Positions 659-26,000 of a stretch of 64,000 bases of DNA are shown here, one piece after another. This stretch comes from a virus. Under the pieces are notes generated by a model. The model did not search any database. It worked only from the letters and a program-made list of their open reading frames with translations, and had not been told where the DNA came from. How positions within the stretch are numbered: position 1 is the first letter of the stretch; each line of letters starts with the position of its first letter. The position numbers were made by a program, and so were the translations under genes. The stretch spans positions 47,161-111,160 of the IMG/VR virus record IMGVR_UViG_3300047325_000170, one strand, 5' to 3'.

Positions 659-3600
659 CTACGAGCGGCCTTTCAACTGATCACTCGCGTCCTTGTCACG
701 GTCGCGGGTCGTGCGGCGTGCGTCTTGCATATCGACGTTCACCTGGGCCCCAATGGCGTTGCTGATCCCGGCACGGAGCGCTTCGGGGCTTGACATGTCC
801 CCGTTCCGACTTGCACGTACCTGGATGTTGTAGCTCTGGGCCGAGCCACCGGTGTCGTTACTCATGACGCGGGTGCGGCCGCCCGTTGGGGGCTTGGGCA
901 TCTCGGGGGCGTCGCGGATCTCCCCGCTCTGTCCGAAGGTCACGGCTGCGGTTGCCAGGGCGCCTGCGCCAAGGCCGGCCATGACCCAGGGGTTCCGGAG
1001 TTTCTCCATCACCCCGCTCATTGAGAGCTTCTTTGCTATTTTAGCACCATCTTCGACCATTGAGCTAGCGTTTTGGGTGACCGGGGCCGAGATCATGTTC
1101 TCGGTGAGGTCCTTGGTCTCGGGCAGCACGGACTCTGGGATGCTTGCCCCGATCTTGGGTTCGGTCAGAGCTTGGCTTGCTGCCTGTGCCTCTTGCATGC
1201 GCTCTTCGGTTGTTCCGGCGGCGTCGATAGCCCCACGTCCAAAGATCCGTGAGAAGATGTCAACCGCGCTCCGGCCGACTTTCTTCCCTGGGTTGGTAAT
1301 AGTGCGCACCCAGTCCCCGGCATTCGCTAGGTCAAGTGGCCCGGCGCCGTTCTTCATGGCGGCTTGAGATTTCCAATTGACCGGTTCGGTAAAGGATTCA
1401 AACCAGGAGATCTCTTTGCCCCACTTGTCAAATTTCGGTTCCGCAGCCTGGCCAGTTTTCACCATGTCTGTGAAAGCCTTGAGGGCTTGGTACTTCCAGA
1501 TATCCTTACCGGCTTCCATGTCCTCCTTGGCGCCCGCAAGGAAGTACTTGTCCATGTAGCTATCAACGTTCATGGAGCCAGCGCTCGTTTGCAGCAAGCC
1601 GCTTTTTTTGTCATAGAGGTCCTGCGTCTTGTCGATCACCGATGCTCCCGCCACGCCCGGGACACTCACGGGCTTGCCAACCGACTGCTGTTGAAGGAGC
1701 GTGGTGAAAGCGTAGGGGTCAAACTGATTGCCGCCCTTCACCTTGAGGAACTCTTCACGAATGATGCCCGCGCCGGTATACTGCAGCGCTGCTAGCTCTC
1801 GTTCTTCTGGACTTGCTGCGGTGTTCTTGATCGTGTTCATGAGCCGGTCTTGGATAGGCGTCGTCACCGCTCCGATGAGACCCTGCGCACTATCAACCTC
1901 GTGCTGCTCGAGGATCCTCTCCATCGTGCTCATCTTTAAGATTGGGAGATTGGTATGATAGTAGTTCTCAAAGTTGGCGAAGAGCTCTGCTGTTTTGGGC
2001 AGGTTCGCTTTGATCTCTTTAAGGGCGGCTTCATGCCCTTCCCACGCTGCAACCTTGGCCGTCCATGCCGATTCGAATTGCCCGTGCAATTTCTGCATGA
2101 TCGCCCGATTGATTTTCGTTCCCTCAAGCATGCCGGCAAGGACAACACGGACCTTGTCACCGTCCGAGTCACCATAGAGTGCCTTACGCAGACTGTCATG
2201 AACGTAGAGGCCAAATCCCTTGATGGTATCGTCGACATAGACCTTTGCGCCCATACGACCGTAGATCGCATTGGGGTCGCGGTGCACGGTTGCCCAGAAG
2301 AACTCTTGTCCCCGCTCGTCTTTCAGCAAGCTTTGGCCCGGGACAGCGCCGATTTGTTTAGCAAACTCCCGAGAAACCTTGGCGCTGAAGGGTTGGAAGG
2401 ACGCATCGTCCGCCCAGAGGGACTGCTGAAGGGGTGCCTTTAAGAAGCCCTTCCCGCTGAAGTCGAGGCTCTTGTAGAGGTTGTTAAGGAGACCCTTCTT
2501 GCCCTTGATCTGCGTTGCAAGCGATTGCTGGTAGGACTCAATAGATTTATTGAGATCATCCAGGTGGGCAAGATTCTCAGGATCGATCCGAGCGCTGAGC
2601 GCAATCACGCGGTCGAGGGCGCGTTGCGATTCGGAGGGACGGTAGCCACCGCCCTTTACGTCGGTGAGATCGGGGATCTCATCGGGGGCGTAGAGCCGCC
2701 GCCCGTTTCCAATATCGATATACTGTGCGCCACGCCCATAGCGTGCGAGGTATTCGTCCTTTGAGAGGACGTTCTTCGGTGCTTGTTCGCGTAGGGCGAT
2801 CTGTTCGGCGGTCATTTCTGTTGCGCCGGTCGCATTCCCGAATTTCATCGGATTTTGGTTGGCTTCATACGCAGAGAGGTATTGGTGGAGCTTGTAGGCT
2901 CTCTTCTGAGTGGTCGGGTTAGCGAGGTAAGAGGTCTTGAGATTCTCAGCCTGGAGAAGGAGACCCTCAGCCTCGTAGGCCTTAATGTCAAAGGCCTGCA
3001 TACCGGCTTCGTTCCGCTTGGGATTGAGGCGTTTGTGCTTTGCGTAGAGCGCTTCTTCCGCTGTCATGTCCGTCGTGGGCGAAGGATCATTGATGACGCG
3101 AGTGGCCAGCATCGACTGTTCATACTGCACGCGGTAGCGGTTCCCGCTCCGTGAGGTGAAGTTGGTTGTTTGGAGTAATTCCATGCCGCCGCTCGGATCG
3201 ATCTTCTGTCCGAGCTCGTTCATCATGCGCTTCGCTTCAAGGGCCTTCGCCACGTTGGTCTCATCAAAGCGATGTTTGCCGGAGATCGCTCGGTTGACGA
3301 CGTAGCCATTCTCGATGCTGAACTTCATACCGAGACCAAGCTGATCGAAGATCTCCTGCAACCCTTGTTGAAGAGCAAGGGCCTTCTGGGGATCCTTGCC
3401 AGCCCGCGCCATCATCATATTCATCTGACCGCGGACGAGCATGCCTGCGCCTTCGTGCTTCTGGAGGGTCTTCACGAGTGGGACGCCAGAGAAGATCTTG
3501 ACGAAGTCATCGTCCCAGGTCGTTTTCCCACCGTTGATGACGACGGTGTTCTTCGACATATCGGCCATGATCTTCATGTTGTGAAGATTGGCCCCGGCCC

Positions 3601-6397
3601 CGAAGGCCTCGTTGATCTCGGGCTTCGCGATGGCCTGTTGTTCGTAGGCCCCCATCACCTGCATCATCTCGTCGGTCCCAAGAGTACGGACAACATTCCC
3701 CGCCTCGTCGAGCTCCTCGCCGCCAACGATGAAACCCATGCCGACATTGCGCTGGTAGGTGGGGTCTGCGAACTCCTTCCCGAGGCGGGACTCTACGCGT
3801 TGGAACTGCGTCATCGCAATCTCGTCCTCTGAATTGCGCAGGGGCACGGCATTGAACTCTTGTTGTGGTCGCGCCCAGGGATTACCACCGGGGACCACGT
3901 CTTGATAGATCGCCGCTGCGACGGGAGATCCCTGACGGCCCGCCTTATTACCAATGATCGCGAGACCCTCGACCCCCTGTCCGGGAGCGGAGCCTTGAAT
4001 CAGCCGCGTGCGAATCCGCTGCAGTTGCCGGTTCTTGACGGACGTATTTGAGCCGATGGTATTGAAGATGCGATTTGCAAAGCTTCCCTCGAAGCCGCCT
4101 CTTTCATCCTCTTTGTTTAAGAACTTCTCTTGAACTGTGTCTCCGCCGGCGCTTTCATAGAGGGCTTTTGCAACGGCATTACCTTCCTTGGGTTCGATAC
4201 GTCCGTCCTCTGCATTTTGAAAGAACTGCCTGAAGAACTTGTCGCGGTTGATGCGACTCTTATCGGTTGTGGCAAAAGCATAGATTGGATTGATTGTCGA
4301 CTCTGGCAAGAGCAAAGCATTATGAACGAGGAGTTGTTCTTGTGTCTGAACGGCCGACGCGGAGATAGCAATCCCGGGATCCTCGGCCGTGGCATCAAGG
4401 ACGCCCTTCCCGAGCTCAGACGTTGCTTGGTCAAAGAGTCCCATGTCGAGTTTGCGGACTGCGCGCTGCATGCGGCGGCCGACCGATGCGAACATGACTT
4501 CGGTGGCTGAGAAAACATGGAGTCCGCCTTGGATGCGGTTCTGCGCCGCAATCTTTCGTGCCTCGGAGTAGTTATTAAATGTCTCCGGTCTGACATGAAC
4601 TGTCTGATATTTCAGTCCTTGGTTGATGAGCTCGTTATCGTCGAGGAACTCGCTTCCCCGGCCCGATTGCCGTAGGACGAGGTCACTGACGCCAAGGTAC
4701 TGGCCGATATATTTGCTCCCGCCGGCCGTTTGGAAGACACCGTTGACGTCTTCAACGGGAAGGAAGAACTGAGCGGCCCCGCCGGTTCCTTTTGAGATGG
4801 CAGCGTTCTCGTGGGGAGCAATGTGAACCCAGACACCGAATCCTTGGCCACCGCCCTTGAGAGGGTTCGACTCTTGGAAGGAATAGGAGACCTTCCACTT
4901 CGCTGCACGCGGGACCGATTTTCCGTCCTTCTGCTCAAAGCTTTGAAAGAACTTGATACGTTCCTGAAGATAGTCGAAGGCGGCTTCACGGTTTCCGCCG
5001 ATGTTGCCGTTCCCGAAGGCGACGATGCCTGTTTTCTTCTCAAAGGTATCAAGGGCCCGAAGCCGCGCGCGTACATGGGCGGCTTCATCGAACTCATTGA
5101 CCTTGCCGGTCCACACTTTCTTGCTACCTTCTTGCTTCATCTCGAAGACTTCGCGTGAGGTAAGCTGCGCGATGTGGGACTCAAGACCACCGGGGATCTC
5201 TTCCGTACCCATCTTGAGGCCCATATGCTGGCCTTGTTGTTCAAGGTTTTCAAAGTGCCGGCGGAAGAAGCCAAAGGCTCCCTCTCCGGTGAAGGCTTCG
5301 CGCCGTAAGACATCCGCCCCGTGGGGCATGCCAAGGCCATTCACTGAGGTTTGCATCGCCTCGAGAACAGGGTTCATAAAGCGCTGCCACATCTTCTTGC
5401 GCAGAGCAGCGCGCATCGCTGGATGCTGGGCCGGATCTCCCTTGATCCGGCCATTCTTTACCAGTCGTTGCCATTGGTTCTCAAAGGCGGTCTCGAAGGT
5501 GTTGTAGATTGCCCGGCTCATCGCTACATTCTGGGGAGCGACGAAGCCCTGCATCACCCGGTTATAGAGGCCCTGTGCATCCTTCGTGTAGACGCCGCCG
5601 ATCCCGCGACTGCGGATCTTCGGGACGATCCCGCCATCGTCGGTTGTGACCGATCCGCGCTCGAGCAGTGCCTTGAAGCCGTCGGGATTGAGGAATTCGT
5701 GGGGCGACTTCTCATCATTCGTCACGCCACTGAGGGCCATCATCGTGCGCTGATGAGTCATGATGAGATCCTGGAAGCGGATCTGGCGCGCGGTCGCCTT
5801 GGTCTGTGCCATGTTAAACATGAGCTGACCGACATCTTCGGGGTTCATGGTTGCAGAGAAGCTCTTGCCAAGCTTTCCTATGGCGCCCTGGGGGACGATG
5901 TTCATCGCCACCTGTCCGCTCTCGGTGAGCGAGGAGCTAACCTTATAGACTCCAAACTGCTTGGTCAACTCGGGGTCCATGAAGCCAGCAGCACGTAGAG
6001 AATCCGTCATGACGTAATAGCCAGAAGGAAGCTCACCTTGCGCGATCTTGGCAGCGGTCTGAGCGCCGGCTGTTTTCATCTCCTCAAGGCGTCCCGCAGC
6101 ATTGGCGGCCCTCTCCGCCTTCGTCTCGGGAGTGAAACGGAAGTCACGTAAGGCAACTCCCATGTCCATGTCGCGGATCTTCCGCCGCGCCGAGGTGAAC
6201 TCAGGGAGATCCTTGGTGGAGGGAACCTTTGTGATCATGGCTTGCCAGACATTTGTGCCGCCCTCTTTAACAAACTTCCAGAGGTTTGCCGTCGCCAGAT
6301 AGCCGCTGCCCCGCATCTTCATATAGACCCCACTCTTGGTGGTGTCTGCGCCTTGGGCTGGAGCGTAATTCTTAACTACCTTGTCGTAGAGAGACAT
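659..6397 (-). CDS. Giant virion-cluster protein (1,912 aa) with RNA polymerase beta-prime-like DPBB motif
   Basis: ATG start overlapping the previous gene's TAA (TAATG). Residues 1408-1415 read YGDSDGDK, matching the DxDGD metal-binding loop of RNA polymerase beta-prime. Upstream, HRDP (1372-1375) and VHD (H1400) correspond to E. coli NRAP and LHP: the His-to-first-Asp distance is 10 in both, and Pro-to-Asp is 35 versus 33. A GLIGAVTTPIQDRL segment follows at about 1506. A Gly/Ala-rich membrane-type helix (about 1780-1800) precedes a charged, Gln/Arg-rich tail. Known single-chain enzymes with this motif include SP-beta YonO and crAss-like virion polymerases. The location after the tail chaperones suggests a protein packaged and ejected with the DNA. 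I could not locate the second barrel with its lysines, so polymerase activity is an inference. Confidence 0.6.
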   Translation of the reverse strand: MSLYDKVVKNYAPAQGADTTKSGVYMKMRGSGYLATANLWKFVKEGGTNVWQAMITKVPSTKDLPEFTSARRKIRDMDMGVALRDFRFTPETKAERAANAAGRLEEMKTAGAQTAAKIAQGELPSGYYVMTDSLRAAGFMDPELTKQFGVYKVSSSLTESGQVAMNIVPQGAIGKLGKSFSATMNPEDVGQLMFNMAQTKATARQIRFQDLIMTHQRTMMALSGVTNDEKSPHEFLNPDGFKALLERGSVTTDDGGIVPKIRSRGIGGVYTKDAQGLYNRVMQGFVAPQNVAMSRAIYNTFETAFENQWQRLVKNGRIKGDPAQHPAMRAALRKKMWQRFMNPVLEAMQTSVNGLGMPHGADVLRREAFTGEGAFGFFRRHFENLEQQGQHMGLKMGTEEIPGGLESHIAQLTSREVFEMKQEGSKKVWTGKVNEFDEAAHVRARLRALDTFEKKTGIVAFGNGNIGGNREAAFDYLQERIKFFQSFEQKDGKSVPRAAKWKVSYSFQESNPLKGGGQGFGVWVHIAPHENAAISKGTGGAAQFFLPVEDVNGVFQTAGGSKYIGQYLGVSDLVLRQSGRGSEFLDDNELINQGLKYQTVHVRPETFNNYSEARKIAAQNRIQGGLHVFSATEVMFASVGRRMQRAVRKLDMGLFDQATSELGKGVLDATAEDPGIAISASAVQTQEQLLVHNALLLPESTINPIYAFATTDKSRINRDKFFRQFFQNAEDGRIEPKEGNAVAKALYESAGGDTVQEKFLNKEDERGGFEGSFANRIFNTIGSNTSVKNRQLQRIRTRLIQGSAPGQGVEGLAIIGNKAGRQGSPVAAAIYQDVVPGGNPWARPQQEFNAVPLRNSEDEIAMTQFQRVESRLGKEFADPTYQRNVGMGFIVGGEELDEAGNVVRTLGTDEMMQVMGAYEQQAIAKPEINEAFGAGANLHNMKIMADMSKNTVVINGGKTTWDDDFVKIFSGVPLVKTLQKHEGAGMLVRGQMNMMMARAGKDPQKALALQQGLQEIFDQLGLGMKFSIENGYVVNRAISGKHRFDETNVAKALEAKRMMNELGQKIDPSGGMELLQTTNFTSRSGNRYRVQYEQSMLATRVINDPSPTTDMTAEEALYAKHKRLNPKRNEAGMQAFDIKAYEAEGLLLQAENLKTSYLANPTTQKRAYKLHQYLSAYEANQNPMKFGNATGATEMTAEQIALREQAPKNVLSKDEYLARYGRGAQYIDIGNGRRLYAPDEIPDLTDVKGGGYRPSESQRALDRVIALSARIDPENLAHLDDLNKSIESYQQSLATQIKGKKGLLNNLYKSLDFSGKGFLKAPLQQSLWADDASFQPFSAKVSREFAKQIGAVPGQSLLKDERGQEFFWATVHRDPNAIYGRMGAKVYVDDTIKGFGLYVHDSLRKALYGDSDGDKVRVVLAGMLEGTKINRAIMQKLHGQFESAWTAKVAAWEGHEAALKEIKANLPKTAELFANFENYYHTNLPILKMSTMERILEQHEVDSAQGLIGAVTTPIQDRLMNTIKNTAASPEERELAALQYTGAGIIREEFLKVKGGNQFDPYAFTTLLQQQSVGKPVSVPGVAGASVIDKTQDLYDKKSGLLQTSAGSMNVDSYMDKYFLAGAKEDMEAGKDIWKYQALKAFTDMVKTGQAAEPKFDKWGKEISWFESFTEPVNWKSQAAMKNGAGPLDLANAGDWVRTITNPGKKVGRSAVDIFSRIFGRGAIDAAGTTEERMQEAQAASQALTEPKIGASIPESVLPETKDLTENMISAPVTQNASSMVEDGAKIAKKLSMSGVMEKLRNPWVMAGLGAGALATAAVTFGQSGEIRDAPEMPKPPTGGRTRVMSNDTGGSAQSYNIQVRASRNGDMSSPEALRAGISNAIGAQVNVDMQDARRTTRDRDKDASDQLKGRS

Positions 6398-9300
6398 TAG
6401 GCCGCCTGCTGAATCTGCATGTTCACTTGATGTTGCTGAGCATTATTGGGATAGAGCTGGATATCGATATCGCGAAGCCCCATACCATCGAGGACGCGAT
6501 GGAGGTTCGCTTTGATGTTGCCGGGGGTCTCGCGGAAGGGACGGATGTCTTTGATCCCAAGCTCACTGACTCGCTCTTCATCCTGCGGCCAGAAGCCTTG
6601 GGAGGTCATATCGAGACCCTCTTGCTTCGTGACAACCAGACGGTAGTCGTCAAGTGAGTTCTCAGCCTGCCAACCATTCCAGTCCGCGGGCGGCAGGTAA
6701 TGGTGCTTGAAGTACTCGATGAGTTCTGGCTTCTCATCGACCTTTAGGCCATAGGCGGCTTGCAAGAAACGGCGCTCGTTCTTGGGCACCATCTTGAGGA
6801 TCTCTTTCCGCTCAGGCCCCGGGGCCTTGAGGAACGCCTGGAAGAACTCACGCTCCTTGGGGTCAAGTGAGAGCAAGACCTTTTGGAGATCGCTACCTGG
6901 CTTCGCACCATAGAGTGTCGTCTGCGCGACCTGACGATACTGGATCGCAAGGATATCATCACGGGTGAGCTTCAGCTCCTTGCGATAGGACTGCAGCTCG
7001 GAGATCTCTTGGTTGATCTCGTGCAAGCGCTTCGCTTGCTTCTTCTTGTCGCCCTTAATGATGATGCGCCGCTTCTCTTGCCGTAGTTGGGAGATGCGGT
7101 GCTTGCGATCATCGCCTTCGCGTTCGTAGCGGTCGATGATCGCGCCGATGTCTTTGTGCTCATGTTTGAGAACGTAGGCGCGCGTCTTCTCGTAGAGCCC
7201 CTCGTACTTCATGTACTTAAGAATGTCGAAGTACTCTTTGGTCTCGCGCTCTTTCTTACGATACTCCGGTATGGGATCTTGTGACACCTTATGGCTGAAG
7301 GCAAGCGCGCCGGCAATCGCCATCGAAGCACCCATCAAGATGGCGCGCGACTTCAACTGGATCTTCCCAAGCTTGAAGCCAAATTTGGTGTTGGGGAGAC
7401 GCTCAATGAGCTTCCCGCCGTAGAGGGGGCCAACCCCGAGGAAGTACCCGATAGCACCGGCAACCGCCATACCGGCGATGCCTTGTGCGGCAGCTGATTC
7501 AAACGAGGGGAAGATGTAATCCCGGAAAGGGTGCTTCCAGTCTTGCCAATCCTTACCGTAGACTTGCGTACGCTTATAGAGTTCGATAGGTGAGTCAAGG
7601 GCCATGTACTTATTGTGAAGCAGGGTGATCGGCAGGTGCCCAATGCGCTCAAGGGCTCCGGCCCAGGCGATCTCGTTGCTCGTGTACTGTGCATGCATAC
7701 CAGCGGGCGAACTATCTTGGGTCTCTGAGCCGTAGTCCTGATCGATAGCTTCGCGGTTGAGCATCCGCCCATGGCTAAAGACGACAGCGTGGATGGTGTT
7801 GAGGGTATCCTTCGAGACACGCTGCGCTTGATCGTGAGCATAGCCGATCTTCACCGTACGCCCCGGCCCGAGATTCTGGCTGAGCCAGGTGGTCGCATCG
7901 GCATCGCTGCGGACGTGAACACCCGCAAGGCGGATCGGATTGTCGGGGTGCTCGAGCGTCGTGAAGGTATTATTGTCGATCATCTTATCGATATGGACGG
8001 TCTCATAGTCGAGCTGTGCATACCGGAGATGATAGGGTGCCATCGTTACGCGGTGCTTGCGCTGCGTAACCTGTTCCTTGACGGTCTTGATGCGTGCTCG
8101 ATCTTCGTCGGAGAGGACGCCTTCGGGGAGATGCACGAGATAGTCGCGGTAGCGCCGGTACTGTGAGGACCAGGGCGCCACATCACCGAGGATCTCGAGC
8201 TTCGTGACATCATCGTAGAACTGGCCTTGGCTCCAAAGGCCTTCTTTCGTCTCCTTGGCGATCTGCTTGCGGACATCGTCGACCTTTGCAATCGTCTTAT
8301 CGTAGAGATCCTGATCGAAGGTCAGCTGCGCGGAACGCTGCTCATTTGGATTGTCGCGGTTGACGTAGACGATGCCGCCCTGCTTTGCGCCAAGCTCGGC
8401 CATGTCCAGGTTGAGTTGTTCGCGATGGCGTGCATCAATCGTGTCATGCAGTTCGCGATAACGCTTCTGCGAGAGGGTGTGGATCTCAATTGGGTTGCCG
8501 TCCTTGGTGACAAAGTCGACGGTTCCGGAGATCCCAAGCTTCTTGTCATCGTAACTGACGTCACGCTTGCCACCCGGCGACTCGCCGAGAAGCTCATGCT
8601 TGATCTTCTCATGCAGCTCTCCACCGCGTTCAGCGATTTCCTGTGAGTAGGCATAGAAGGGCTCGTGGTCTCCCGTTAAGAGTCCATAGAGTCCGTCGCG
8701 AGAGTAGCCGATCTGCGTGCTGCGTAGCTTGAGGTCCATGGCTGGTATTCCATGGAGTTTCTCGTAGGCCGCACCTGGCAGGCGCGCTTCACCGTTCGGG
8801 ATCGTGACATAGGGGTCGCCGTGGAGGAAGTCGAGGAAGTAGGCGGGGTCTTCACCGCCCTGCCCCGGCAACCAGGTGGGCATTGTATTCCGGATCGGAT
8901 TGTATTCGGTGTTGGAGTGATAGCGGTGGGGCAGGAAACGACGGAAGGCTTCTGAGAGCCCCGGTGTCGGCAGCATGCCGCCGGTGTTCCAGTTATCCCA
9001 GTACTGCCGCTCGAACGAGGTCATCCGTCCTGCTGATTGCAGGGTCGGCAAGTTGGAGTAGGGATAGTCCACGGTGCTCGCCGCGGCGAAGCCGTAGATA
9101 CCGCCGATTTCCGTTAAGGAGTAGTAGCCAAGACCGGCCTGATAGCGTGGATCGTTGGGATTGATGAGTCGCTTGAGGGAGCGGGGATCATTCGGATCCT
9201 GCGACTTGAAGAGCCCCGGCGCTTGCGTGCCTTCGAGCATACGCCCCGGCGTGAAGCGCTGCGCTGCCTTGAGCTTCTCGTTGGACTCACGGATCTTTTG

Positions 9301-11583
9301 GCGTGTCTTCGCCTTGGCCGAACCGTAGGGCGCAATCGCCCGCGCACCCTTCCCGTAGCTGCCGCGCTGGACGCCTTCGTCATAGCCCGCATCGCTGTCG
9401 TCAGCGTCGTCTTGGGTATCGTCATTGATCGCAGCAATCGCCCGATCAGAACCGGGCAGGCCCACCGCGCCCATCGGCAGGATCTGGCCCGAGGCGGTGA
9501 CAAAGCCGGTGAGTTCTTGGTTAGCAGCCTTTTCTTTGATTTGCTCGTTGAGGGTGCGAAGATCTCCGCGGTACTTGGGATTGCGTTCGCCCTGGTGGGG
9601 GCCAGAGATCAAATACGGAAGATCCTCCGCATGCATGTATTTCGTCGGCTTGAGGATCGGGCCGAGAATTGGGTTGAGGAGGGCGCCCCAGGGTGAAGTG
9701 GGCTCAAAGAGCGGGGCGGAGATCGGATAGGGGCGGTCCTTGTAGTGCTTCTTCTCGTAGTGATAGCGATCAAAGAGGAAGTGCTGCGCCCAACTGAAGG
9801 GATGCGTCGGTGTGGGGAGGGCGGCATTAGCGTAGTATTCATCAACTGAACCGAAAAGGGTGTCGGTCTTGGTGATGTCGCCAGCTAAGGCTTGACGATG
9901 AGCATTGGGAGCAAAGTACTGGATGCGCTCGCCGCGGAACGGCGTGCTCGATCCGAAGCTCCACCAGCGGCCCTTGCGGACCGGGACATAGCCACTGTCC
10001 TGTTGCTCCTTGAGTTCCTCTTGGCTGAGGCCAACCTTCGCATCGACGAAGGGGTGGGCGATGTGAGAGAGGACACCGCCGGAGAGCTCATCGACATGCT
10101 TGAGCCACGGACTGATCCCAAGCTTGTCCTTAAGTCCCGCCCACCAGAGCTCACCCTTATCCTTGGCGAGCTGTGCTTGATCGGTCGGGCGGCGCCCCAT
10201 GAGCTTGCCGAGTTCATCGTTGAGATAGCCTGCGTAGAAGATCCCCGCCGCGATAGGCAAGGCCCGCTTGAGCATGACATTCGCAAAGTAGGCGGTCGGA
10301 CCCTTAAAGGCTAGCTTCCCGAGCTTGAACTCGGTGGATGATCCCGACATCGCAAGCCATGGGAAGAGGCCATTGTAGGCCATGCCCGTGTTGATACGCT
10401 CGAGGAGATGATAGGCGGCAAAGGTGCCGGTGTTGATCTCGGTTCCGCGGGTTGCCCCGAAGAACATGTTCTTGAGACCAGTGGGCGTGAACTCCATGGC
10501 CCGTGCCACCCCGAAGGGCAGCTGATCAGCAAGGCGTCGTGCCTCGGGAAGATCCTCGACTGCAATGTTTCCGAAGCGGGACTGCCAGAACTTCTCGCGG
10601 CCCTCTTTGCTCCAGATTGCCGCGCCGCGCTCATTGAGGCCAACGTCGAAGAAGCGTTGCGCACGAGCTCGTAAGCTGGTGTTTCCGGGATCGCGAATCG
10701 CAGCGATCTTCTCGAGCTTCTCATTGAGCGTCTCAAGGTTGAAAAGCCGCACCCCTTCTTCCTGAGAGATTCCCCGCTCTTCGCGGATAACATCTCCCCG
10801 GATCCTTGAGATGAGTTTTTGATTGCGACTAATGCGAGCATGGATATTGCCGACATCATAGCTCTCGCCGAGGAGATCGCCACGCATGCGCTCGATGGCG
10901 TTCTTCTTCTCGCCAATCCCCGCCTTACCATAGAGCCAGTACTTGCCTTCAATGGTATGGATCTTGCTCCACAGTAGCTGTGGAGGCGCCCCTTCGCCCG
11001 GGCTATCAAGAAGGGCTTGAACGACGTGAACCTTACCACCGACGAAGTAGGCACGGGCGTGCTCTGAGATCCCGCGCTTCTGGAGTTCTTCAGGGGTGAG
11101 GAGGCCGAGCTTGCCGATTCTCCCGAGGGCTTGGAACTGAGAGGTCGACTTGCCGGCCGTCCCATACATCTCACGGAGTTCAGGACCGAAGGCGAGCTTA
11201 TCGGCGATCTGGAGCGGCAGGAAGGTCTGAGACGCTTTCTGCCACGCGGTCATCAGCGGCGAGCGGCTAATGAACATCCCCAGGGCATGGATGCTATTGG
11301 CTTCAGGGGCCTTGCCCTGCAGGTGGTTGTAAAGGAGATTGGTTTCGATGGTCCGCCGCTGCATGGCACGCAGGGCAGTCGTTTGCTTCATCCAGCCAGG
11401 TGGCGTGAAGGCGAGGCCGCCCTGTTGGAAGGCGACCTGCATCTCCGCAGCAAGGGTCTTATCAGCCCACGGCTTGAGGCCCTTGCCCAACGCAAAAAGA
11501 CCGCCGACAGTAGCTGCTCCGGTGAGGAGCGAACGGCGGCGGTCGTCTTCGCTGTTGGGGGGGTTGTAGCCGTACTCAGCCAC
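6397..11583 (-). CDS. Giant tail-region protein (1,728 aa): tape-measure or ejection protein with embedded RecB/Cas4-like nuclease motif
   Basis: GTG start. It sits directly after the two tail-assembly-chaperone-like genes, the usual tape-measure position, and ends in TAATG with the 1,912-aa gene. Gly/Ala-rich hydrophobic helices appear near residues 18-36, about 440-460, and in a pair around 1360-1410, which fits a protein that enters membranes during DNA ejection. Around residues 1000-1090 there is a PD-(D/E)XK-type arrangement: GTVDF (D1023), then IEIHT (E1033, H1035), then a conserved-looking QLNLDMAEL helix and a YVNR strand, as in RecB/Cas4 nucleases. The expected Lys is His1035. A charged coiled-coil stretch (about 1420-1530) follows. 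Whether it is tape measure, nuclease or both is inference. Confidence 0.65.
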   Translation of the reverse strand: MAEYGYNPPNSEDDRRRSLLTGAATVGGLFALGKGLKPWADKTLAAEMQVAFQQGGLAFTPPGWMKQTTALRAMQRRTIETNLLYNHLQGKAPEANSIHALGMFISRSPLMTAWQKASQTFLPLQIADKLAFGPELREMYGTAGKSTSQFQALGRIGKLGLLTPEELQKRGISEHARAYFVGGKVHVVQALLDSPGEGAPPQLLWSKIHTIEGKYWLYGKAGIGEKKNAIERMRGDLLGESYDVGNIHARISRNQKLISRIRGDVIREERGISQEEGVRLFNLETLNEKLEKIAAIRDPGNTSLRARAQRFFDVGLNERGAAIWSKEGREKFWQSRFGNIAVEDLPEARRLADQLPFGVARAMEFTPTGLKNMFFGATRGTEINTGTFAAYHLLERINTGMAYNGLFPWLAMSGSSTEFKLGKLAFKGPTAYFANVMLKRALPIAAGIFYAGYLNDELGKLMGRRPTDQAQLAKDKGELWWAGLKDKLGISPWLKHVDELSGGVLSHIAHPFVDAKVGLSQEELKEQQDSGYVPVRKGRWWSFGSSTPFRGERIQYFAPNAHRQALAGDITKTDTLFGSVDEYYANAALPTPTHPFSWAQHFLFDRYHYEKKHYKDRPYPISAPLFEPTSPWGALLNPILGPILKPTKYMHAEDLPYLISGPHQGERNPKYRGDLRTLNEQIKEKAANQELTGFVTASGQILPMGAVGLPGSDRAIAAINDDTQDDADDSDAGYDEGVQRGSYGKGARAIAPYGSAKAKTRQKIRESNEKLKAAQRFTPGRMLEGTQAPGLFKSQDPNDPRSLKRLINPNDPRYQAGLGYYSLTEIGGIYGFAAASTVDYPYSNLPTLQSAGRMTSFERQYWDNWNTGGMLPTPGLSEAFRRFLPHRYHSNTEYNPIRNTMPTWLPGQGGEDPAYFLDFLHGDPYVTIPNGEARLPGAAYEKLHGIPAMDLKLRSTQIGYSRDGLYGLLTGDHEPFYAYSQEIAERGGELHEKIKHELLGESPGGKRDVSYDDKKLGISGTVDFVTKDGNPIEIHTLSQKRYRELHDTIDARHREQLNLDMAELGAKQGGIVYVNRDNPNEQRSAQLTFDQDLYDKTIAKVDDVRKQIAKETKEGLWSQGQFYDDVTKLEILGDVAPWSSQYRRYRDYLVHLPEGVLSDEDRARIKTVKEQVTQRKHRVTMAPYHLRYAQLDYETVHIDKMIDNNTFTTLEHPDNPIRLAGVHVRSDADATTWLSQNLGPGRTVKIGYAHDQAQRVSKDTLNTIHAVVFSHGRMLNREAIDQDYGSETQDSSPAGMHAQYTSNEIAWAGALERIGHLPITLLHNKYMALDSPIELYKRTQVYGKDWQDWKHPFRDYIFPSFESAAAQGIAGMAVAGAIGYFLGVGPLYGGKLIERLPNTKFGFKLGKIQLKSRAILMGASMAIAGALAFSHKVSQDPIPEYRKKERETKEYFDILKYMKYEGLYEKTRAYVLKHEHKDIGAIIDRYEREGDDRKHRISQLRQEKRRIIIKGDKKKQAKRLHEINQEISELQSYRKELKLTRDDILAIQYRQVAQTTLYGAKPGSDLQKVLLSLDPKEREFFQAFLKAPGPERKEILKMVPKNERRFLQAAYGLKVDEKPELIEYFKHHYLPPADWNGWQAENSLDDYRLVVTKQEGLDMTSQGFWPQDEERVSELGIKDIRPFRETPGNIKANLHRVLDGMGLRDIDIQLYPNNAQQHQVNMQIQQAA

Positions 11584-11595
11584 GTAGGAAGTCCT

Positions 11596-12342
11596 TTACG
11601 ATCTGTTCTGTTTGAGACTTGCCATCAGTTGCTGACGACGTTGTGCTTTCTCGAACTTTGGTAGGACTTCACTGAGCGGCTTGAGGGCTGCTCGATCTGC
11701 GCCGTCGATGACCCCGAGGGTTGATCCACTCTCGTCGGCGACCTGTTGATTCTTGTTGAGGCGCTCTTGAAGTTCGGCCATGCGTTCTTTGTTATTGAGG
11801 CCACGCGGTGGCTTGATTGGTTTCTCTTCTTCTTTCTTACTCTGCTGGATCTTCAGCCCCGGCGTCGTCGCTTCAAGGATCCAACAAGCCCGTGCATAGG
11901 CATCGAAGAGTTGATCGTGACTCCAATCACTGTAGCGGGCGAAAAGCCCCCCGCCATCAAAGGCATAGTCGATCATCGTCTCCATCTGAGCTTCAAAGTC
12001 TTCAACGATACGCCCCTGGTAGAAGCCGAGGCGTCCTTCCATATCGATGATGCCGGAAGAATTGAGGACCTGAGCGCAGATAGCATCCGGTACACCGGCC
12101 GGTCCATCTTGGACTGCGGGGGCATCTGCCTTCCATCCCTCGGGCCAGAGGAGCGTTGTCTCGCAGACTTCTTCGGCGCGTTCGAGCTCGTCTTCGATAT
12201 GAATAATAGCTCGGTACTCACGCCGCGAGAGTCGCCGGTAGATGTAGATCTGCTCGACGTGCTGGAATAAGAAAATAGCCCCGTAGTCAGCAATCCAACT
12301 ACGGAAGCGTTCCTCCGGCGGCGCTTGCGGCGCTGCCTCCAC
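11596..12342 (-). CDS. Tail assembly chaperone-like protein (248 aa)
   Basis: The start is GTG in TAAGGAGTG: it lies 3 nt after the preceding stop, and the SD-like AAGGAG overlaps it, which suggests translational coupling. The N-terminal half carries YIYRRLSRREYR, then ETTLLWPEGW, DGPAG and NSSGI. The same order (YR-LTR-E-W, CLFP, PAG, SAF) occurs in the 158-aa protein encoded just upstream. The C-terminal half is charged and helical. Such pairs before the tape measure act as tail assembly chaperones in many phages, coating the tape measure and absent from the mature virion. There is no sign of the programmed frameshift used by lambda-like phages; here the two are separate genes. Confidence 0.55.
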   Translation of the reverse strand: MEAAPQAPPEERFRSWIADYGAIFLFQHVEQIYIYRRLSRREYRAIIHIEDELERAEEVCETTLLWPEGWKADAPAVQDGPAGVPDAICAQVLNSSGIIDMEGRLGFYQGRIVEDFEAQMETMIDYAFDGGGLFARYSDWSHDQLFDAYARACWILEATTPGLKIQQSKKEEEKPIKPPRGLNNKERMAELQERLNKNQQVADESGSTLGVIDGADRAALKPLSEVLPKFEKAQRRQQLMASLKQNRS

Positions 12343-15129: not shown

Positions 15130-16809
15130 TTAGGTTACTCCACCTTGTTGGCTGCTGCTGCCGGACTGGGTGATCGCTCCCGGTGCAGTGAGCGAGATCG
15201 TGACGTAGATCTTCCGGATCTGCAGAGCGGGAACGAGCTGCAGGTTGATCTGGAAGGTACCGGCGATCTGGTTCGCTGCCGTAGCGTTGATGTTCCAGGT
15301 GTAGTCAAGCAGGGCACCTGAGCTCTTGAGAGCCGCGAGTGCGGAGTTGACGGCGGTACCCATGGCGTTAATCGTAGCGGGGTTGGCTGCTCCGCCGATG
15401 AAGCCGGCGCAAGCCTGACGGACCGCTTCCATCGAGGCGTAGGTGATACGCAGCGTGGAGAGCTTGGCGAAGTCTCCACCAGAGACTTCGTAGGTCTGGT
15501 CAGCAACCGTGCGGACCGATCCCTGCTGGGTGTTGAAGACCACGAAGCCCGGACCGGAACCGACGAGGGTGTTGATGACCGAGGCTCCGTAGTTGTAGGA
15601 GAGGCCGACAACCGAAGAGAGGGTCTTGTTCGTCATACCGATTTGCGGCTGGATGGTCGTCGACTTTCCAGCGTAGGTTGCGGCGCCGTCCATGACGTAG
15701 TTGCCAAGGCGCTGGTTGTTGAGGATCGGGTCGGGACCGACGCAGATGTTGAGCAAGTACCCGATGTTCAGAGCCGCACCCGCCGTGGTCAAGACCTCAG
15801 CGTTTGAGACCGCCGGGCTGTTCGTGTTGTAGCCCGAGAGGTAGTTGAAGTTGTACTTTGTTAACGCCAACTGATTGCCGCGACGAACCGCGTTCGTGAA
15901 GGTCGGCACCGAGAGGGGAGCAACTGAGATCACACCGTAGCAGGACTGGGTATCGACCGAGACGCGCGCACAGAACTGCGCGAGATTCTGACCGAACCAG
16001 ACCGTATCGCCGCTGTTTGCATTGGCGATGGTTGGGTTGCCGGAGGCATCGAGCGCGTAGGTGGGCTGCAGGTAAGCACCCAGGGGGCAGACGACGTCCA
16101 CGCCGTAGGTCTCGAGCTGCATGTAGGCCGCAACGAGCGCGTCATTGTACTGCGCATCGGTGAGGTTGGTGCCGTCGTTACCACCGCTGAAGTTGGTCGG
16201 GCCAGAGTTCACAACGTTGATCGTGGCGAGGGGGTTCCCTGACGTGCTCGCCTGCGTTGCGACAACGTTGATCGTCGAGAAGTTAACCGCGTTCATCAGG
16301 TCGCCCCAGATGCCGCCCACCGGGATCGGGAAGGCGTGCGCGACGCCATCGAGGGTCGTGATGGTCAGAGATCCAGCGCCTGTGCCGGGAGCAACAACCG
16401 TTGCCGTCAGGCCATTGTACTTCACGCCGGGGTAGTTCGCGGTGAGGGTCACGCTATTCGCGGGGGTGACCGTGTCGGTGATAACAACTGAAGAACCCGT
16501 GCCCGAAACGCGCACGAGGTTGATGTTGGTGCAGCCAGCTTGGAAGGCTTCGTAGACGCCGCGAGTGAGCGACTTCGCCAGAATCGGCGCAGCCGTAATC
16601 GACGGCGCTGCCGTGGTGATCCCGAAGATCTGCTCGGCTTGAGCAATCGAGGTGATCTGGATCGGCGTGTAAAGGGGGCCGTCCGTCGCCACACCAAGCA
16701 GCAAGACTGCGTCGGTGAGATTCTGCGGCGGTTGTGCAACCTTGAGGCCGAAGTCCTGAATCTGGGCTACAAAGCCTGGAGTATTCGGGTAGATGTCGGA
16801 GATTGGCAA
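15130..16809 (-). CDS. Contractile tail sheath protein (559 aa)
   Basis: I chose TTG at 16809 because AAGGAGAG lies about 8 nt upstream; a longer reading from 16839 places that site inside the gene. The N-terminal part has VLLLGVATDGP and the sheath-like NINLVRVSGTGSSV. The C-terminal domain has FAKLSTLRITYASMEAVRQA, a GALLDYTWNI strand and RKIYVTISL, typical of tail sheath C-terminal domains. The same C-terminal pattern occurs in the 358-aa protein at 17849. It forms the contractile outer tube. The stop is TAA followed directly by TAG. Confidence 0.75.
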   Translation of the reverse strand: MPISDIYPNTPGFVAQIQDFGLKVAQPPQNLTDAVLLLGVATDGPLYTPIQITSIAQAEQIFGITTAAPSITAAPILAKSLTRGVYEAFQAGCTNINLVRVSGTGSSVVITDTVTPANSVTLTANYPGVKYNGLTATVVAPGTGAGSLTITTLDGVAHAFPIPVGGIWGDLMNAVNFSTINVVATQASTSGNPLATINVVNSGPTNFSGGNDGTNLTDAQYNDALVAAYMQLETYGVDVVCPLGAYLQPTYALDASGNPTIANANSGDTVWFGQNLAQFCARVSVDTQSCYGVISVAPLSVPTFTNAVRRGNQLALTKYNFNYLSGYNTNSPAVSNAEVLTTAGAALNIGYLLNICVGPDPILNNQRLGNYVMDGAATYAGKSTTIQPQIGMTNKTLSSVVGLSYNYGASVINTLVGSGPGFVVFNTQQGSVRTVADQTYEVSGGDFAKLSTLRITYASMEAVRQACAGFIGGAANPATINAMGTAVNSALAALKSSGALLDYTWNINATAANQIAGTFQINLQLVPALQIRKIYVTISLTAPGAITQSGSSSQQGGVT

Positions 16810-16921
16810 GTCACTCTCTCCTTGAGAGGAGATCAACAAACTCTAACTTACCCTGCATCTAGCGAACAGGCTCTTCAGCCCTAGCGCTCAGGTAATCTTG
16901 CGTGTACCTCTGGAGAGAGGC

Positions 16922-17848: not shown

Positions 17849-18925
17849 TTAGAGCACCAAGTTGATCTGCGCAGAGACCTGAATGAAGTCGGTTTCGAAG
17901 GGCGGCAAGACCGAGACCGTGATGTAGACCGCGCTCTGGACCGCTTGGACGGTGATGTCATAGGTGTAGGCGAGGATCGTTCCTGCGCTCTTGAGCGTAT
18001 CGAGAACCCCGACGACGAGCGGCGTAAGATTCGATGGCGCGGGATCTCCGATGAAGCTGACCGTAAGATCTCGTAAGGCACGAGAGACGGCATTGGCAAT
18101 CCGCATCGTCGAGAGAGTGTGGAAATCTGAAGAGTAGATCGGCGAGCTTGGATTGTTGCTTGTCGCCGTCACACCGTAGAAGGGCGAGACCCCATTGCGG
18201 ATATGGTACTTGAGTACCGTATAGCCCGCGTTCGAGAGTGCTTGGGCATCGCTTGTATCGTAGGGGTTGAGCAGATTGAGCCCCGCCAGGGTTTCGTTCG
18301 TGATGCTAACTGCAGGGGTGAGCTTGGCCATCAAGCCTGCCACTGAGGGTGCCGCATCGGCCTGGTATTGCGAGGGGATGTTCGGATTGATCAGCACCTG
18401 ATCGAGGGTGAGCACGAAGTTCCGACCAAGAACATCGAGCGCATTTTCAAGGGTGTTGAAGCCTGCGTTGTACCCATCTGGTGAAGCGGTGAGAGCTGCG
18501 ACACCAGGACTCGGATCGGCTGGCATGACGGTAATCGTCGGGAAGCCGATCTGACTGCGCAGGTACGAGAACTGTCCGAAGAGGGCAAGGTTAGAAGGTG
18601 TTGCGATCATGCCGGCCGGGACCAGGATGTCATACGGGATGTCTTTGAGGTAATCAAAGACAGCCGAGAGATCGCTTTCCTGGTAGATGGCAACGGCGAT
18701 GATACAAGGGGCGCTTTGCCGGAAGAGTTCGCCAATCGCGCGGGTAAAGCGTCCGTAGCCGTAAAGGTTCGCCGCTGAAACCAGGTCCGTAATAATGTAG
18801 GGCGTGTTGTAGATCGAGAGATCAAGACCAGGAACGACGCCAAGCACGAGGACCGTTTGGTTGACGGGGAGGTTCGGTGTTGCGGGAGCAAGCGGTGCGA
18901 ACGAGGTAGGGGAGAGATAACTCAC
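17849..18925 (-). CDS. Second tail sheath-like protein (358 aa)
   Basis: GTG start with GGAG 7 nt upstream. The N-terminus (TVLVLGVVPGL) and the C-terminal domain (DFHTLSTMRIANAVSRAL, then AGTILAYTYDI and VYITVSVLPPF) match the order of strands and helices in the 559-aa sheath, but the protein lacks about 200 residues of middle domains. It could be a short sheath for a special ring, such as the tail cap or baseplate-proximal ring, or a sheath completion protein. Sheath homology is well supported by the internal comparison; its separate role is inferred. Confidence 0.65.
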   Translation of the reverse strand: MSYLSPTSFAPLAPATPNLPVNQTVLVLGVVPGLDLSIYNTPYIITDLVSAANLYGYGRFTRAIGELFRQSAPCIIAVAIYQESDLSAVFDYLKDIPYDILVPAGMIATPSNLALFGQFSYLRSQIGFPTITVMPADPSPGVAALTASPDGYNAGFNTLENALDVLGRNFVLTLDQVLINPNIPSQYQADAAPSVAGLMAKLTPAVSITNETLAGLNLLNPYDTSDAQALSNAGYTVLKYHIRNGVSPFYGVTATSNNPSSPIYSSDFHTLSTMRIANAVSRALRDLTVSFIGDPAPSNLTPLVVGVLDTLKSAGTILAYTYDITVQAVQSAVYITVSVLPPFETDFIQVSAQINLVL

Positions 18926-23090: not shown

Positions 23091-26000
23091 CTAAGTAATG
23101 TAGGCCGAGATAACGGCCGTCGAACTAGACTGATAGGAGGAGTTGGAGCTGACGTTTCCGCCCGCGTTGCTGATACCGTTCGCCCCTTGCTTACCGACCA
23201 AAAGACACGCGCTGCGCGCTGAGTCTGCCGGATCGCAGTGGTACAAGTCTGCCCACGGTGGGTAGCCAATCTGATAACTACCGTGACTGACCAAGCCAAC
23301 GAGAACAATCGGCCAGGAGCCTGCAGGCGGTGTCCATGACGGGAGTCTCACGAGATACGTTCCCGTTGCATCGGCGGCACTATTGATGGTGATGGATCGC
23401 GTACCTTGCACTTCCCAAACGATGCACGCGCCTTCGTCCGTGTTGTTCCAATTGAAGGTAACGGCAGTGTCCGAGGCACTTGCCTTCTTGAAGATTGCAA
23501 CGCCGGAATAGGGCGAGGTGGTGTGGCTCGAAACGCTCGTCCAACCGGAAGGCGTGTTGAGCGTTTGGCTGGGGCCGTCCCAATAGACGAAAGCGAAGAG
23601 CGTGTTGCCGCTCGCTGCTGCTGTTCCCGGAAGTGTTGCGGTGATGCTTGGCCCCTGCGTGCCGAACGTACCCGCCATCGCTGATTGAATGATGGTGAAC
23701 GGATAGCCACCCGTGACCGTCACCGGATACGGCGTCAGCACCGAGACGCTCGTTCCCGTGATGCCTTGCACAATGCAGCTGTAGGGTGTTGAACCATCCG
23801 TACTTGGGAGCTGCACAAGCTCTCCCACGTTGAGACTTGGCGCAGACGTAAAGCTCATTGTGCCCGTGGATCCAGCAGCCGGCGGATAGAACGTAGACGC
23901 CAGCGCAGGATAACTCACGCCACCGCCACCGCTGCCTCCCGAAGAAGCGATAGTGAACGTGTTGCCGCTTTGCGTCACACCGCTTCCGGTGAGGGTGATC
24001 GCTCCGGTGACTGTGGAGCTTGGACCGATAATGGACGTGACACCTGATGCGCTACCGCTGCCGGATGTGCTGCTGTAGACGATGATGGAGCTGCCGGATC
24101 GCGTGACCGTCGTTCCGCCGCTGCCGACAAGTGCAAGGGTGCCGCTCGCCCCATTGAGCGTTGTGACGCCGCCACTTGTCGTGCCACCACCAAGGTTCGC
24201 GAACTGATAGTTCTTTGTGCCGCCAACGCTTGGCACATAGAAGATTGCGCCGTAGTCGTTCGTGAGTCCAGAGCCTGTTGTCGTTGCTGCTTGCGAAGCA
24301 ACGGCACTTGGGTTGGAGATATGCTGCGTCACGAGGTAGGTGCCAGCGAGGTCAAGGGTCCAGCCACTCGAAGCAACCGCCGTGCCTGCGCCACCGGAGA
24401 ACGTCTGTATCGCGAAGCTCAAAGAGTATGCGGGCACGGAGATTGAGGCCGTAGGATTGCTCGACGTTGCAACCGGAGTGGACGGCGTACCCCAATTGTT
24501 CACTTCATACATGACGTTTTGCGAGCTGCCGGTTAAGGCCACGCTTTGGTCAGAGCTGCCCGCTGAGGTCTTGGTAAAGACCGCCATGTTGTAACCGCTT
24601 GTATTATAGAAGGTCATCGTCCAACCGGAAGGCACCGACGGTTCTCCCGTGTTGTAGTACATTCCGAGGATAATGAGCAGGTTACCAACGGTTGGCGCAG
24701 ACACAAGTGATGCCGTCGAACTTGCGTAAGCTGATGAGTTTTTCTGCACCACCGATGGTTGCGGTTCTTCAGGGTTGTAGACGAGCGCATAGCCCAGCTG
24801 CTGCGTCGTTGTATCTACATCGGTCAGCGCCGCAAGGGTTGTGGCGCTTCCACCCGCACCCGTGCTAGAGATATTGATTGCGGAGCCTGAGACGGTCAGC
24901 GTGATATTGCTGCCCTGTTGAAGGGTGACGCCGCCCGTCAGACCATTGATCGAGGTAACGCCACCTCCACCAGAACCACTCGCGGTTGAATTGATGGTGA
25001 TCGCGGTGCCGCTCTGGACAACGGTGATGTTGGTACCAGCCTTGATGGCAAGGGCACCCGTTGCGCTATTGAGGCTCGTGACGCCGCCCGGAGATCCACC
25101 GGCAACGACAAAGCTGCCCGCCGCTGTCCCTGGCGTGACGGTTGTTCCACCGCTACCGAGGAGCGTGATTGGTCCCGTGTCGCCATTGAACGAACTGACC
25201 AGGCCACCAGAGGCAACGCTGCTGATGGTCAGGGTGCCACTTGAGGCGGTGATCGTGGTGCTGCCCGATCCCACAATATTGACGGGACCGAGGACTTCGG
25301 TGCCGTTGACGCTGATTGGCCCGCTGATGGCGACGAACTCGTAGGGCTGATTTGCGTTCGCGGGTGGAATGTAGAAGAGGCCATACGTGCCCGCGCCAGC
25401 TGTGGTGAAGGCATTGGCCGTTAAGGTCGGTGTGTAGGTTGTTGAGCCATTTGCGGTAATGGTCTCGGTATCGAAGGCCCAGGAATAGCCAGATCCTACG
25501 GGCGGTGTCGGACCTTCGTAGTCGGTCCAGCCGCTCATCGGGACCGGGAAGCTAGACGAACGATTCCCGAAGGTTGCAACGACAAGAGAATTGATGACCG
25601 GTGTGACACTGAGCGTTCCGCCCGTCGTGGAGAATCCGGTCGTCGTTTGGGCGCCGGCGGGCGTTCCCGCATTGGCAATCTCAAAGAGTTGGACGCTTGT
25701 CGCAGTGTTGCCGCTGCTTAAGAAAGTGACGCCCGTGTCCGTGCCGCTCGCGATCTTGTAAGCGGCAGCGGCAGTCTGGTAGTTGTTGGTCTGTGTGTAG
25801 ATGCTCGTCCAGCCCGAAGGGAGACTGTACGGGAAGCCATCGGCGAAGATGACAAGGAGCATCATGTTCCCTTGGATCGGCGTCGTCGGGAAGCTGAAGG
25901 TGGTTGGACCCGCGGCAGTACTCGCAAAGGAGACCGTCTGCCGGATGGTCGGGGATGGATTATAGGTTAGGTAGGTACCAAAGGCTTGCGTGCTCGTTGC

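What the first reader, a model, noticed from the sequence alone, without database searches (positions are those of the whole stretch)
6397..11583. RecB/Cas4-like nuclease motif with His in place of Lys inside a tape-measure-like giant
D1023 (GTVDF), E1033 and H1035 (IEIHT) occupy the D-(D/E)-x-K positions, followed by a Q-containing helix and a YVNR strand as in RecB/Cas4 nucleases. A His at the Lys position is unusual. The host protein has membrane-type helices and sits in the tape-measure slot, so the domain may reach the host cytoplasm first, acting on host DNA or protecting phage DNA.
Basis: partly seen in the sequence, partly recalled or inferred. Interest (0 to 1): 0.75.

Follow-up and report, generated by a model that had tools for sequence, protein, structure and literature searches.

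The report
Decayed Cas4-like nuclease in phage tail giant
A very large tail protein of a giant-phage lineage carries a real DNA-nuclease domain inserted at one fixed spot, but this phage's copy has lost catalytic residues that most relatives with the domain keep, so it is probably a worn-out nuclease rather than a new kind of one.

Summary
Residues 946-1126 of the 1,728-aa minus-strand protein are a genuine RecB/Cas4-like PD-(D/E)XK domain (phrog_1706, E 1.7e-10; AlphaFold core pLDDT about 90-98; VIA Z 15.5 to LHK-Exo, 14.6 to Cas4 SSO0001). By gene order the protein corresponds to gp145 of Bacillus phage 0305phi8-36: between the tail chaperonins and the gene assigned as tape measure there, not that gene itself. 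The nuclease is a module at one conserved point of the giant. Among 111 non-redundant relatives, 12 have it with a canonical (D/E)xK site, 5 keep the fold with a damaged site (this phage E-x-H; others Q-x-Q, N-x-R twice, P-x-K), 2 have deletion remnants, and 92 lack it. This copy also lost the QhxxY tyrosine. Recurrent inactivation is therefore more likely than His-based catalysis, though no assay exists. The next gene (659-6397), whose counterpart is called tape measure in 0305phi8-36, belongs to a family with a predicted RNA-polymerase beta'-like double-psi barrel and DxDGD motif, which suggests a multi-enzyme set of tail proteins, probably ejected (inferred).

The parts
6397..11583 (-). giant tail protein, 1,728 aa, gp145 type of the 0305phi8-36 lineage; host of the nuclease insert
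   Evidence: ORF and translation; homologues in KLEB27-3, MTATph1, ME3 and IMG/VR contigs
8206..8748 (-). RecB/Cas4-like PD-(D/E)XK domain, residues about 946-1126, inserted between the conserved RLPG and ILxDVAP motifs
   Evidence: phrog_1706 E 1.7e-10; insert against 19-31 aa linker in most relatives; model and fold matches
8611..8613 (-). H991, motif-I His (kept)
   Evidence: carrier alignment
8515..8517 (-). D1023, metal-ligand Asp (kept)
8485..8487 (-). E1033, metal-ligand Glu (kept)
8479..8481 (-). H1035 (CAC), in place of the catalytic Lys
   Evidence: codon; Lys in all 12 canonical carriers
8416..8418 (-). Q1056, Gln of the QhxxY motif (kept)
8404..8406 (-). D1060 in place of the Tyr of the QhxxY motif
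659..6397 (-). next gene, 1,912 aa, in the position called tape measure (orf146) in 0305phi8-36; RNA-polymerase beta'-like region with DSDGD at 2156-2170
   Evidence: profile made without this copy E 8e-10; family profile against PDB; PF00623 in 4 of 17 family members; model of a relative
11596..12342 (-). tail-chaperonin-position gene, similar to L007 3717-4388
   Evidence: position as orf143/144 in PMC2147016
12346..12822 (-). second tail-chaperonin-position gene, similar to the same L007 gene
12853..14204 (-). two genes similar to KLEB27-3 genes annotated as tail tube proteins
15130..16839 (-). tail sheath
   Evidence: phrog_16991 E 5.9e-67 and PF17482
1..634 (-). start of a 2,231-aa hub-position gene that continues left of the window
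   Evidence: L181 ORF; similar to KLEB27-3 putative baseplate and MTATph1 genes

Best explanation
The stretch is a RecB/Cas4-like PD-(D/E)XK nuclease domain carried as an optional insert at one fixed position of a conserved giant tail protein (gp145 type) of the 0305phi8-36 lineage. In relatives with an intact site the domain most likely cuts or resects DNA around genome entry, carried with other tail contents that include an RNA-polymerase-like giant (inferred). In this phage the domain keeps the fold, both acidic metal ligands, the motif-I His and the motif Gln, but has lost the catalytic Lys (now His) and the QhxxY Tyr. It is most likely a catalytically weak or dead copy kept as a folded or DNA-binding module, one stage in repeated decay and loss of the insert. 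Shown by computation: fold, homology, insertion site, residue loss in several relatives, remnants. Inferred: inactivity, virion location and delivery.
For: Fold and family. Insert at one point, absent in most relatives. Canonical site in 12 carriers, damaged in this phage, L092, L102, L111 and L133, remnants in L039 and L010. On the tree of flanks the damaged pair L102/L111 sits inside a supported clade of canonical carriers and remnant L010 inside another. Gene order fits the tail cassette of 0305phi8-36. RNA-polymerase-like neighbour. Homologues are annotated as structural or virion structural proteins in KLEB27-3 and ME3.
Against: Lys is replaced by E, Q or N in some active restriction enzymes (PMC4081073), so His alone does not prove inactivity. 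Both acidic ligands, the motif-I His and the Gln are kept, which is more than L092, L102, L111 or L133 keep. q and L092 may share one loss (AU p 0.77), so the number of independent losses is uncertain. No close relative was found to measure selection. Virion location is from annotation of homologues only.
Confidence: 0.62

Rival explanations
1. The domain is an active nuclease with His doing the job of the Lys, injected with the tail contents to act on host or incoming DNA.
For: D1023, E1033, H991 and Q1056 are kept; the fold is predicted with high confidence; E, Q or N can stand in for Lys in active PD-(D/E)XK restriction enzymes (PMC4081073).
Against: All 12 canonical carriers have Lys and none has His; the QhxxY Tyr is lost as well; other relatives show different damage at the same site.
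Confidence: 0.22
2. The insert now has only a structural role, filling space or aiding assembly inside the tail, with no DNA-related function.
For: Most relatives do without it, with a linker of 19-31 aa; damaged versions keep the fold; remnants exist.
Against: A nuclease fold kept in shape, with acidic ligands, is not needed to fill space; 12 carriers keep the catalytic site.
Confidence: 0.11
3. The insert is a selfish homing-type element (intein or similar) in a gene that is a target for such elements.
For: KLEB27-3 has its homologue interrupted by a stretch with an HNH-type ORF, ending within a conserved motif of the same gene.
Against: The insert is in frame, at another point, aligned across carriers with conserved ends; the fold is exonuclease-like; no splicing motifs were noticed (not searched for systematically).
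Confidence: 0.03
4. His at position 1035 is a sequencing or assembly error.
For: The source is an uncultured viral record, and reads could not be checked.
Against: CAC differs from both Lys codons by two bases, the frame is open through 1,728 codons, and the Tyr to Asp change at 1060 is separate.
Confidence: 0.02

Closest known systems
Cas4 / RecB-like PD-(D/E)XK exonucleases (Cas4 SSO0001, LHK-Exo, lambda exonuclease, MGME1; phrog_1706, phrog_1990, PF12705)
   Same: Fold, order of motifs, both acidic ligands, motif-I His, motif Gln
   Different: Embedded in a giant tail protein; catalytic Lys and QhxxY Tyr replaced in this copy; no Cys for an iron-sulphur cluster was looked for
gp145-type protein of Bacillus phage 0305phi8-36 (L007) and homologues in KLEB27-3, MTATph1 and ME3
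   Same: Same gene position and family; L007 carries the nuclease insert at the same point with a canonical D-x-K
   Different: KLEB27-3 and MTATph1 have a 24-aa linker instead; this phage's site is damaged. The name gp145 is inferred from gene order
Tape-measure-fused virion RNA polymerase of Thermus phage P23-45 (PMC10770324)
   Same: Concerns the neighbour 659-6397: a DxDGD motif in a giant tail protein at the position called tape measure
   Different: In P23-45 the polymerase is N-terminal and shown active; here the motif is in the C-terminal part and only predicted
Polyvalent proteins injected by phages (mentioned in PMC7824862)
   Same: Large proteins with exchangeable enzymatic domains thought to enter with DNA
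   Different: Whether this family was listed there was not checked; injection is not shown here

Membership tests
RecB/Cas4-like PD-(D/E)XK nuclease (fold family) | Sequence similarity to Cas4/RecB-like profiles | tested here: met
   phrog_1706 E 1.7e-10, phrog_2506 E 5.6e-6; profile that includes this copy matches 4ic1 E 1.1e-4
RecB/Cas4-like PD-(D/E)XK nuclease (fold family) | Predicted alpha-beta-beta-beta-alpha-beta core like solved members | tested here: met
   Model of 797-1200, core pLDDT about 90-98; Z 15.5 LHK-Exo (163 residues, rmsd 3.1), 14.6 Cas4 SSO0001, 14.1 lambda exonuclease
RecB/Cas4-like PD-(D/E)XK nuclease (active enzyme) | D ... (D/E)-x-K catalytic residues complete | tested here: not met
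   D1023 and E1033 present, Lys replaced by His1035
RecB/Cas4-like PD-(D/E)XK nuclease (active enzyme) | QhxxY motif after the third strand | tested here: not met
   Q1056 present, Tyr replaced by Asp1060
RecB/Cas4-like PD-(D/E)XK nuclease (active enzyme) | Metal-dependent DNA cleavage | not testable with these tools
   Needs purified protein
Tape measure protein | Gene position and assignment in the best-studied relative | tested here: not met
   Tape measure assigned to orf146, the next gene; this gene lies between chaperonins and orf146 (PMC2147016)
Tape measure protein | Protein length sets tail length | not testable with these tools
   No virion of this phage is known
Two-barrel RNA polymerase (neighbour gene 659-6397) | beta'-type double-psi barrel with DxDxD | tested here: met
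   DSDGD in the window copy, held-out profile E 8e-10, family profile and model; the model is of a relative (L024)
Two-barrel RNA polymerase (neighbour gene 659-6397) | Second (beta-type) barrel with catalytic Lys residues | tested here: inconclusive
   A profile of the N-terminal part gave no RNA polymerase match; the model covered 965 of 2,264 residues of one relative at mean pLDDT 57

The most novel reading that the evidence does not exclude
The lineage ships an exchangeable DNA-processing module (Cas4-like nuclease in gp145-type proteins, DEDDh-type exonuclease in the next giant of some relatives) beside an RNA-polymerase-like giant in the tail, and this phage keeps a re-purposed, non-cleaving or His-dependent version that binds entering DNA or its ends.
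Probability: 0.25. Interest if true: 0.75.

Novelty: new variant of a known kind. Interest (0 to 1): 0.5.

Why it matters
It gives a clear place to ask what nucleases carried by tail proteins do at genome entry: canonical, damaged, remnant and empty versions of the same insert exist at one site in related phages. These include a contig that fits cultured 0305phi8-36 (canonical) and the cultured phages KLEB27-3 and MTATph1 (empty). It also points to an RNA-polymerase-like domain in the gene family whose 0305phi8-36 member is called tape measure.

Tried and rejected
Close relatives of the whole protein or domain were sought to test selection; only distant ones were found, so no dN/dS. A tree of the flanks has weak deep branches: q and L092 may be sisters (AU test does not reject, p 0.77), so the count of independent active-site losses is uncertain, probably two to four; the test for all carriers as one clade did not finish. 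The C-terminal third of q has no credible match in the PDB. PF12705 finds no such nuclease in the record and phrog_1706 finds only this one, but the record is a 111-kb fragment. The literature was searched for tail or tape-measure proteins with Cas4-like domains without a relevant hit; absence in that library is weak evidence. Sequencing error and recent import (GC3 of the insert like its flanks) were considered and found unlikely.

Full report
The observation. The minus-strand ORF 6397-11583 encodes 1,728 aa, and D1023, E1033, H1035, Q1056 and YVNR are exactly where stated. Residues 976-1111 match phrog_1706, 'CRISPR/Cas system associated', at E 1.7e-10. The record is a 111,160-base virus contig and the window is its right part.

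What the protein is. Searches found homologues in Bacillus phage KLEB27-3, Moorella phage MTATph1 and Acinetobacter phage ME3 and in many IMG/VR contigs. One of these, L007, has a contig length of 218,948 and a gene order that fit Bacillus phage 0305phi8-36 (the exact genome length is from my own knowledge; PMC2147016 says 218 kb); ME3's record independently names 0305phi8-36 proteins as homologues of this gene and its neighbours. Upstream in the window are two genes that both resemble one chaperonin-position gene of L007, two genes similar to KLEB27-3 tail tube proteins, and the sheath. Downstream are a 1,912-aa giant and a 2,231-aa gene similar to hub-position proteins. In 0305phi8-36 the order is chaperonins orf143/144, then tape measure orf146 'one gene removed', then hub orf147 (PMC2147016). 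By this order the finding's protein corresponds to gp145, and the tape measure assignment belongs to the next gene. The name gp145 is my inference; the paper text does not discuss orf145.

The nuclease is an insert. Between the conserved motifs RLPG and ILADVAP most relatives have 19-31 residues, while carriers have about 190-260. Alignment of carriers shows a motif-I His, the Asp, (D/E)-x-K, Q-x-N-(F/Y)-Y and the last strand and helix. A profile of the inserts matches Cas4 SSO0001, Pfam PDDEXK_1 matches 5 of 10, and PHROG families named Cas4-domain, RecE-like and other exonucleases match several members. The model of residues 797-1200 has pLDDT of about 90-98 over the nuclease core, and its best structural neighbours are LHK-Exo (Z 15.5, 163 residues, rmsd 3.1), Cas4 SSO0001 (Z 14.6) and lambda exonuclease (Z 14.1).

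The His. Of 17 non-redundant sequences with a recognisable core, 12 are canonical. This phage has E-x-H and lacks the QhxxY Tyr. L092 has Q-x-Q, with Gln to Glu and no motif-I His. L102 and L111 have N-x-R, with Gln to Glu and no motif-I His. L133 has P-x-K with neither the His nor the Gln. L039 has lost the core and keeps the ends; L010 keeps only the last helix. On the flank tree the damaged pair L102/L111 lies inside a supported clade of canonical carriers, and L010 inside another. q and L092 may share their loss. The pattern is repeated decay of an optional domain. Lys can be replaced by E, Q or N in active restriction enzymes (PMC4081073), so inactivity of this copy is likely but not shown.

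Mechanism. In canonical carriers a DNA nuclease in a tail protein most plausibly acts when DNA and tail contents enter the cell; that is inference from gene position and from enzymes known in tail giants. In this phage the fold without Lys and Tyr could still bind DNA or simply persist.

The neighbour. The downstream family shows R-x-P ... D-x-D-G-D or a close variant in most members of the main group; among 17 aligned sequences the R, P and three Asp are invariant. A profile finds only RNA polymerase largest subunits in the PDB at E below 1 (best 1.3e-4, phiKZ non-virion RNAP), Pfam Rpb1 domain 2 matches 4 of 17, and the model of a relative's region, though of low overall confidence (mean pLDDT 57), matches RNA polymerase largest subunits in all top 50 Foldseek rows and has a double-psi-barrel match at about 467-577. 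The window copy is recognised by a profile built without it (E 8e-10). The motif is absent from the homologues in L007, L010, L016 and several others. The tape-fused virion RNAP of P23-45 is a precedent (PMC10770324), and a YonO-like RNAP (ABS83659.1) was already reported in 0305phi8-36 (PMC7824862); I could not tell which gene that is. Several relatives also have a DEDDh-type exonuclease signature near the N-terminus of this giant.

Verdict. The His is best seen as one of several active-site losses. The wider arrangement is a new variant of a known kind.

Noticed in passing
window 659-6397 (-), DSDGD at 2156-2170: Giant next to the finding, in the position called tape measure in 0305phi8-36, belongs to a family with an RNA-polymerase beta'-like double-psi barrel and DxDGD motif. 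Motif missing in L007, L010 and L016.
   Followed up: partly
L024:6742-13533; also L019, L021, L022, L027, L028, L038, L013: The same giant in several relatives has a DEDDh-type 3'-5' exonuclease signature (DIET ... HxAxxD) near its N-terminus; not seen by this pattern in the window copy.
   Followed up: partly
L003:13548-14649: In Bacillus phage KLEB27-3 the homologue of the finding's gene is split within the motif NPIRNxMPDW, with an HNH-type ORF (gp032) in between, as in an intron with a homing endonuclease.
   Followed up: partly
L019 and L020: 7809-8965: The gene is interrupted by about 1.15 kb near the same region in these contigs too, again between the two halves of the homologue.
   Followed up: no
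L010:8479-9243: Shows the LHPD linker typical of relatives without the insert together with the last helix typical of carriers, as if the two forms had recombined or the insert had been cut out unevenly.
   Followed up: no
window 15130-16839 and 17849-18925 (-): Two tail-sheath-like genes, both matching phrog_16991 and phrog_279; KLEB27-3 and MTATph1 also have two genes annotated as sheath.
   Followed up: no
window 23091-33011 (-): A 3,306-aa ORF, the longest in the window, was not examined.
   Followed up: no
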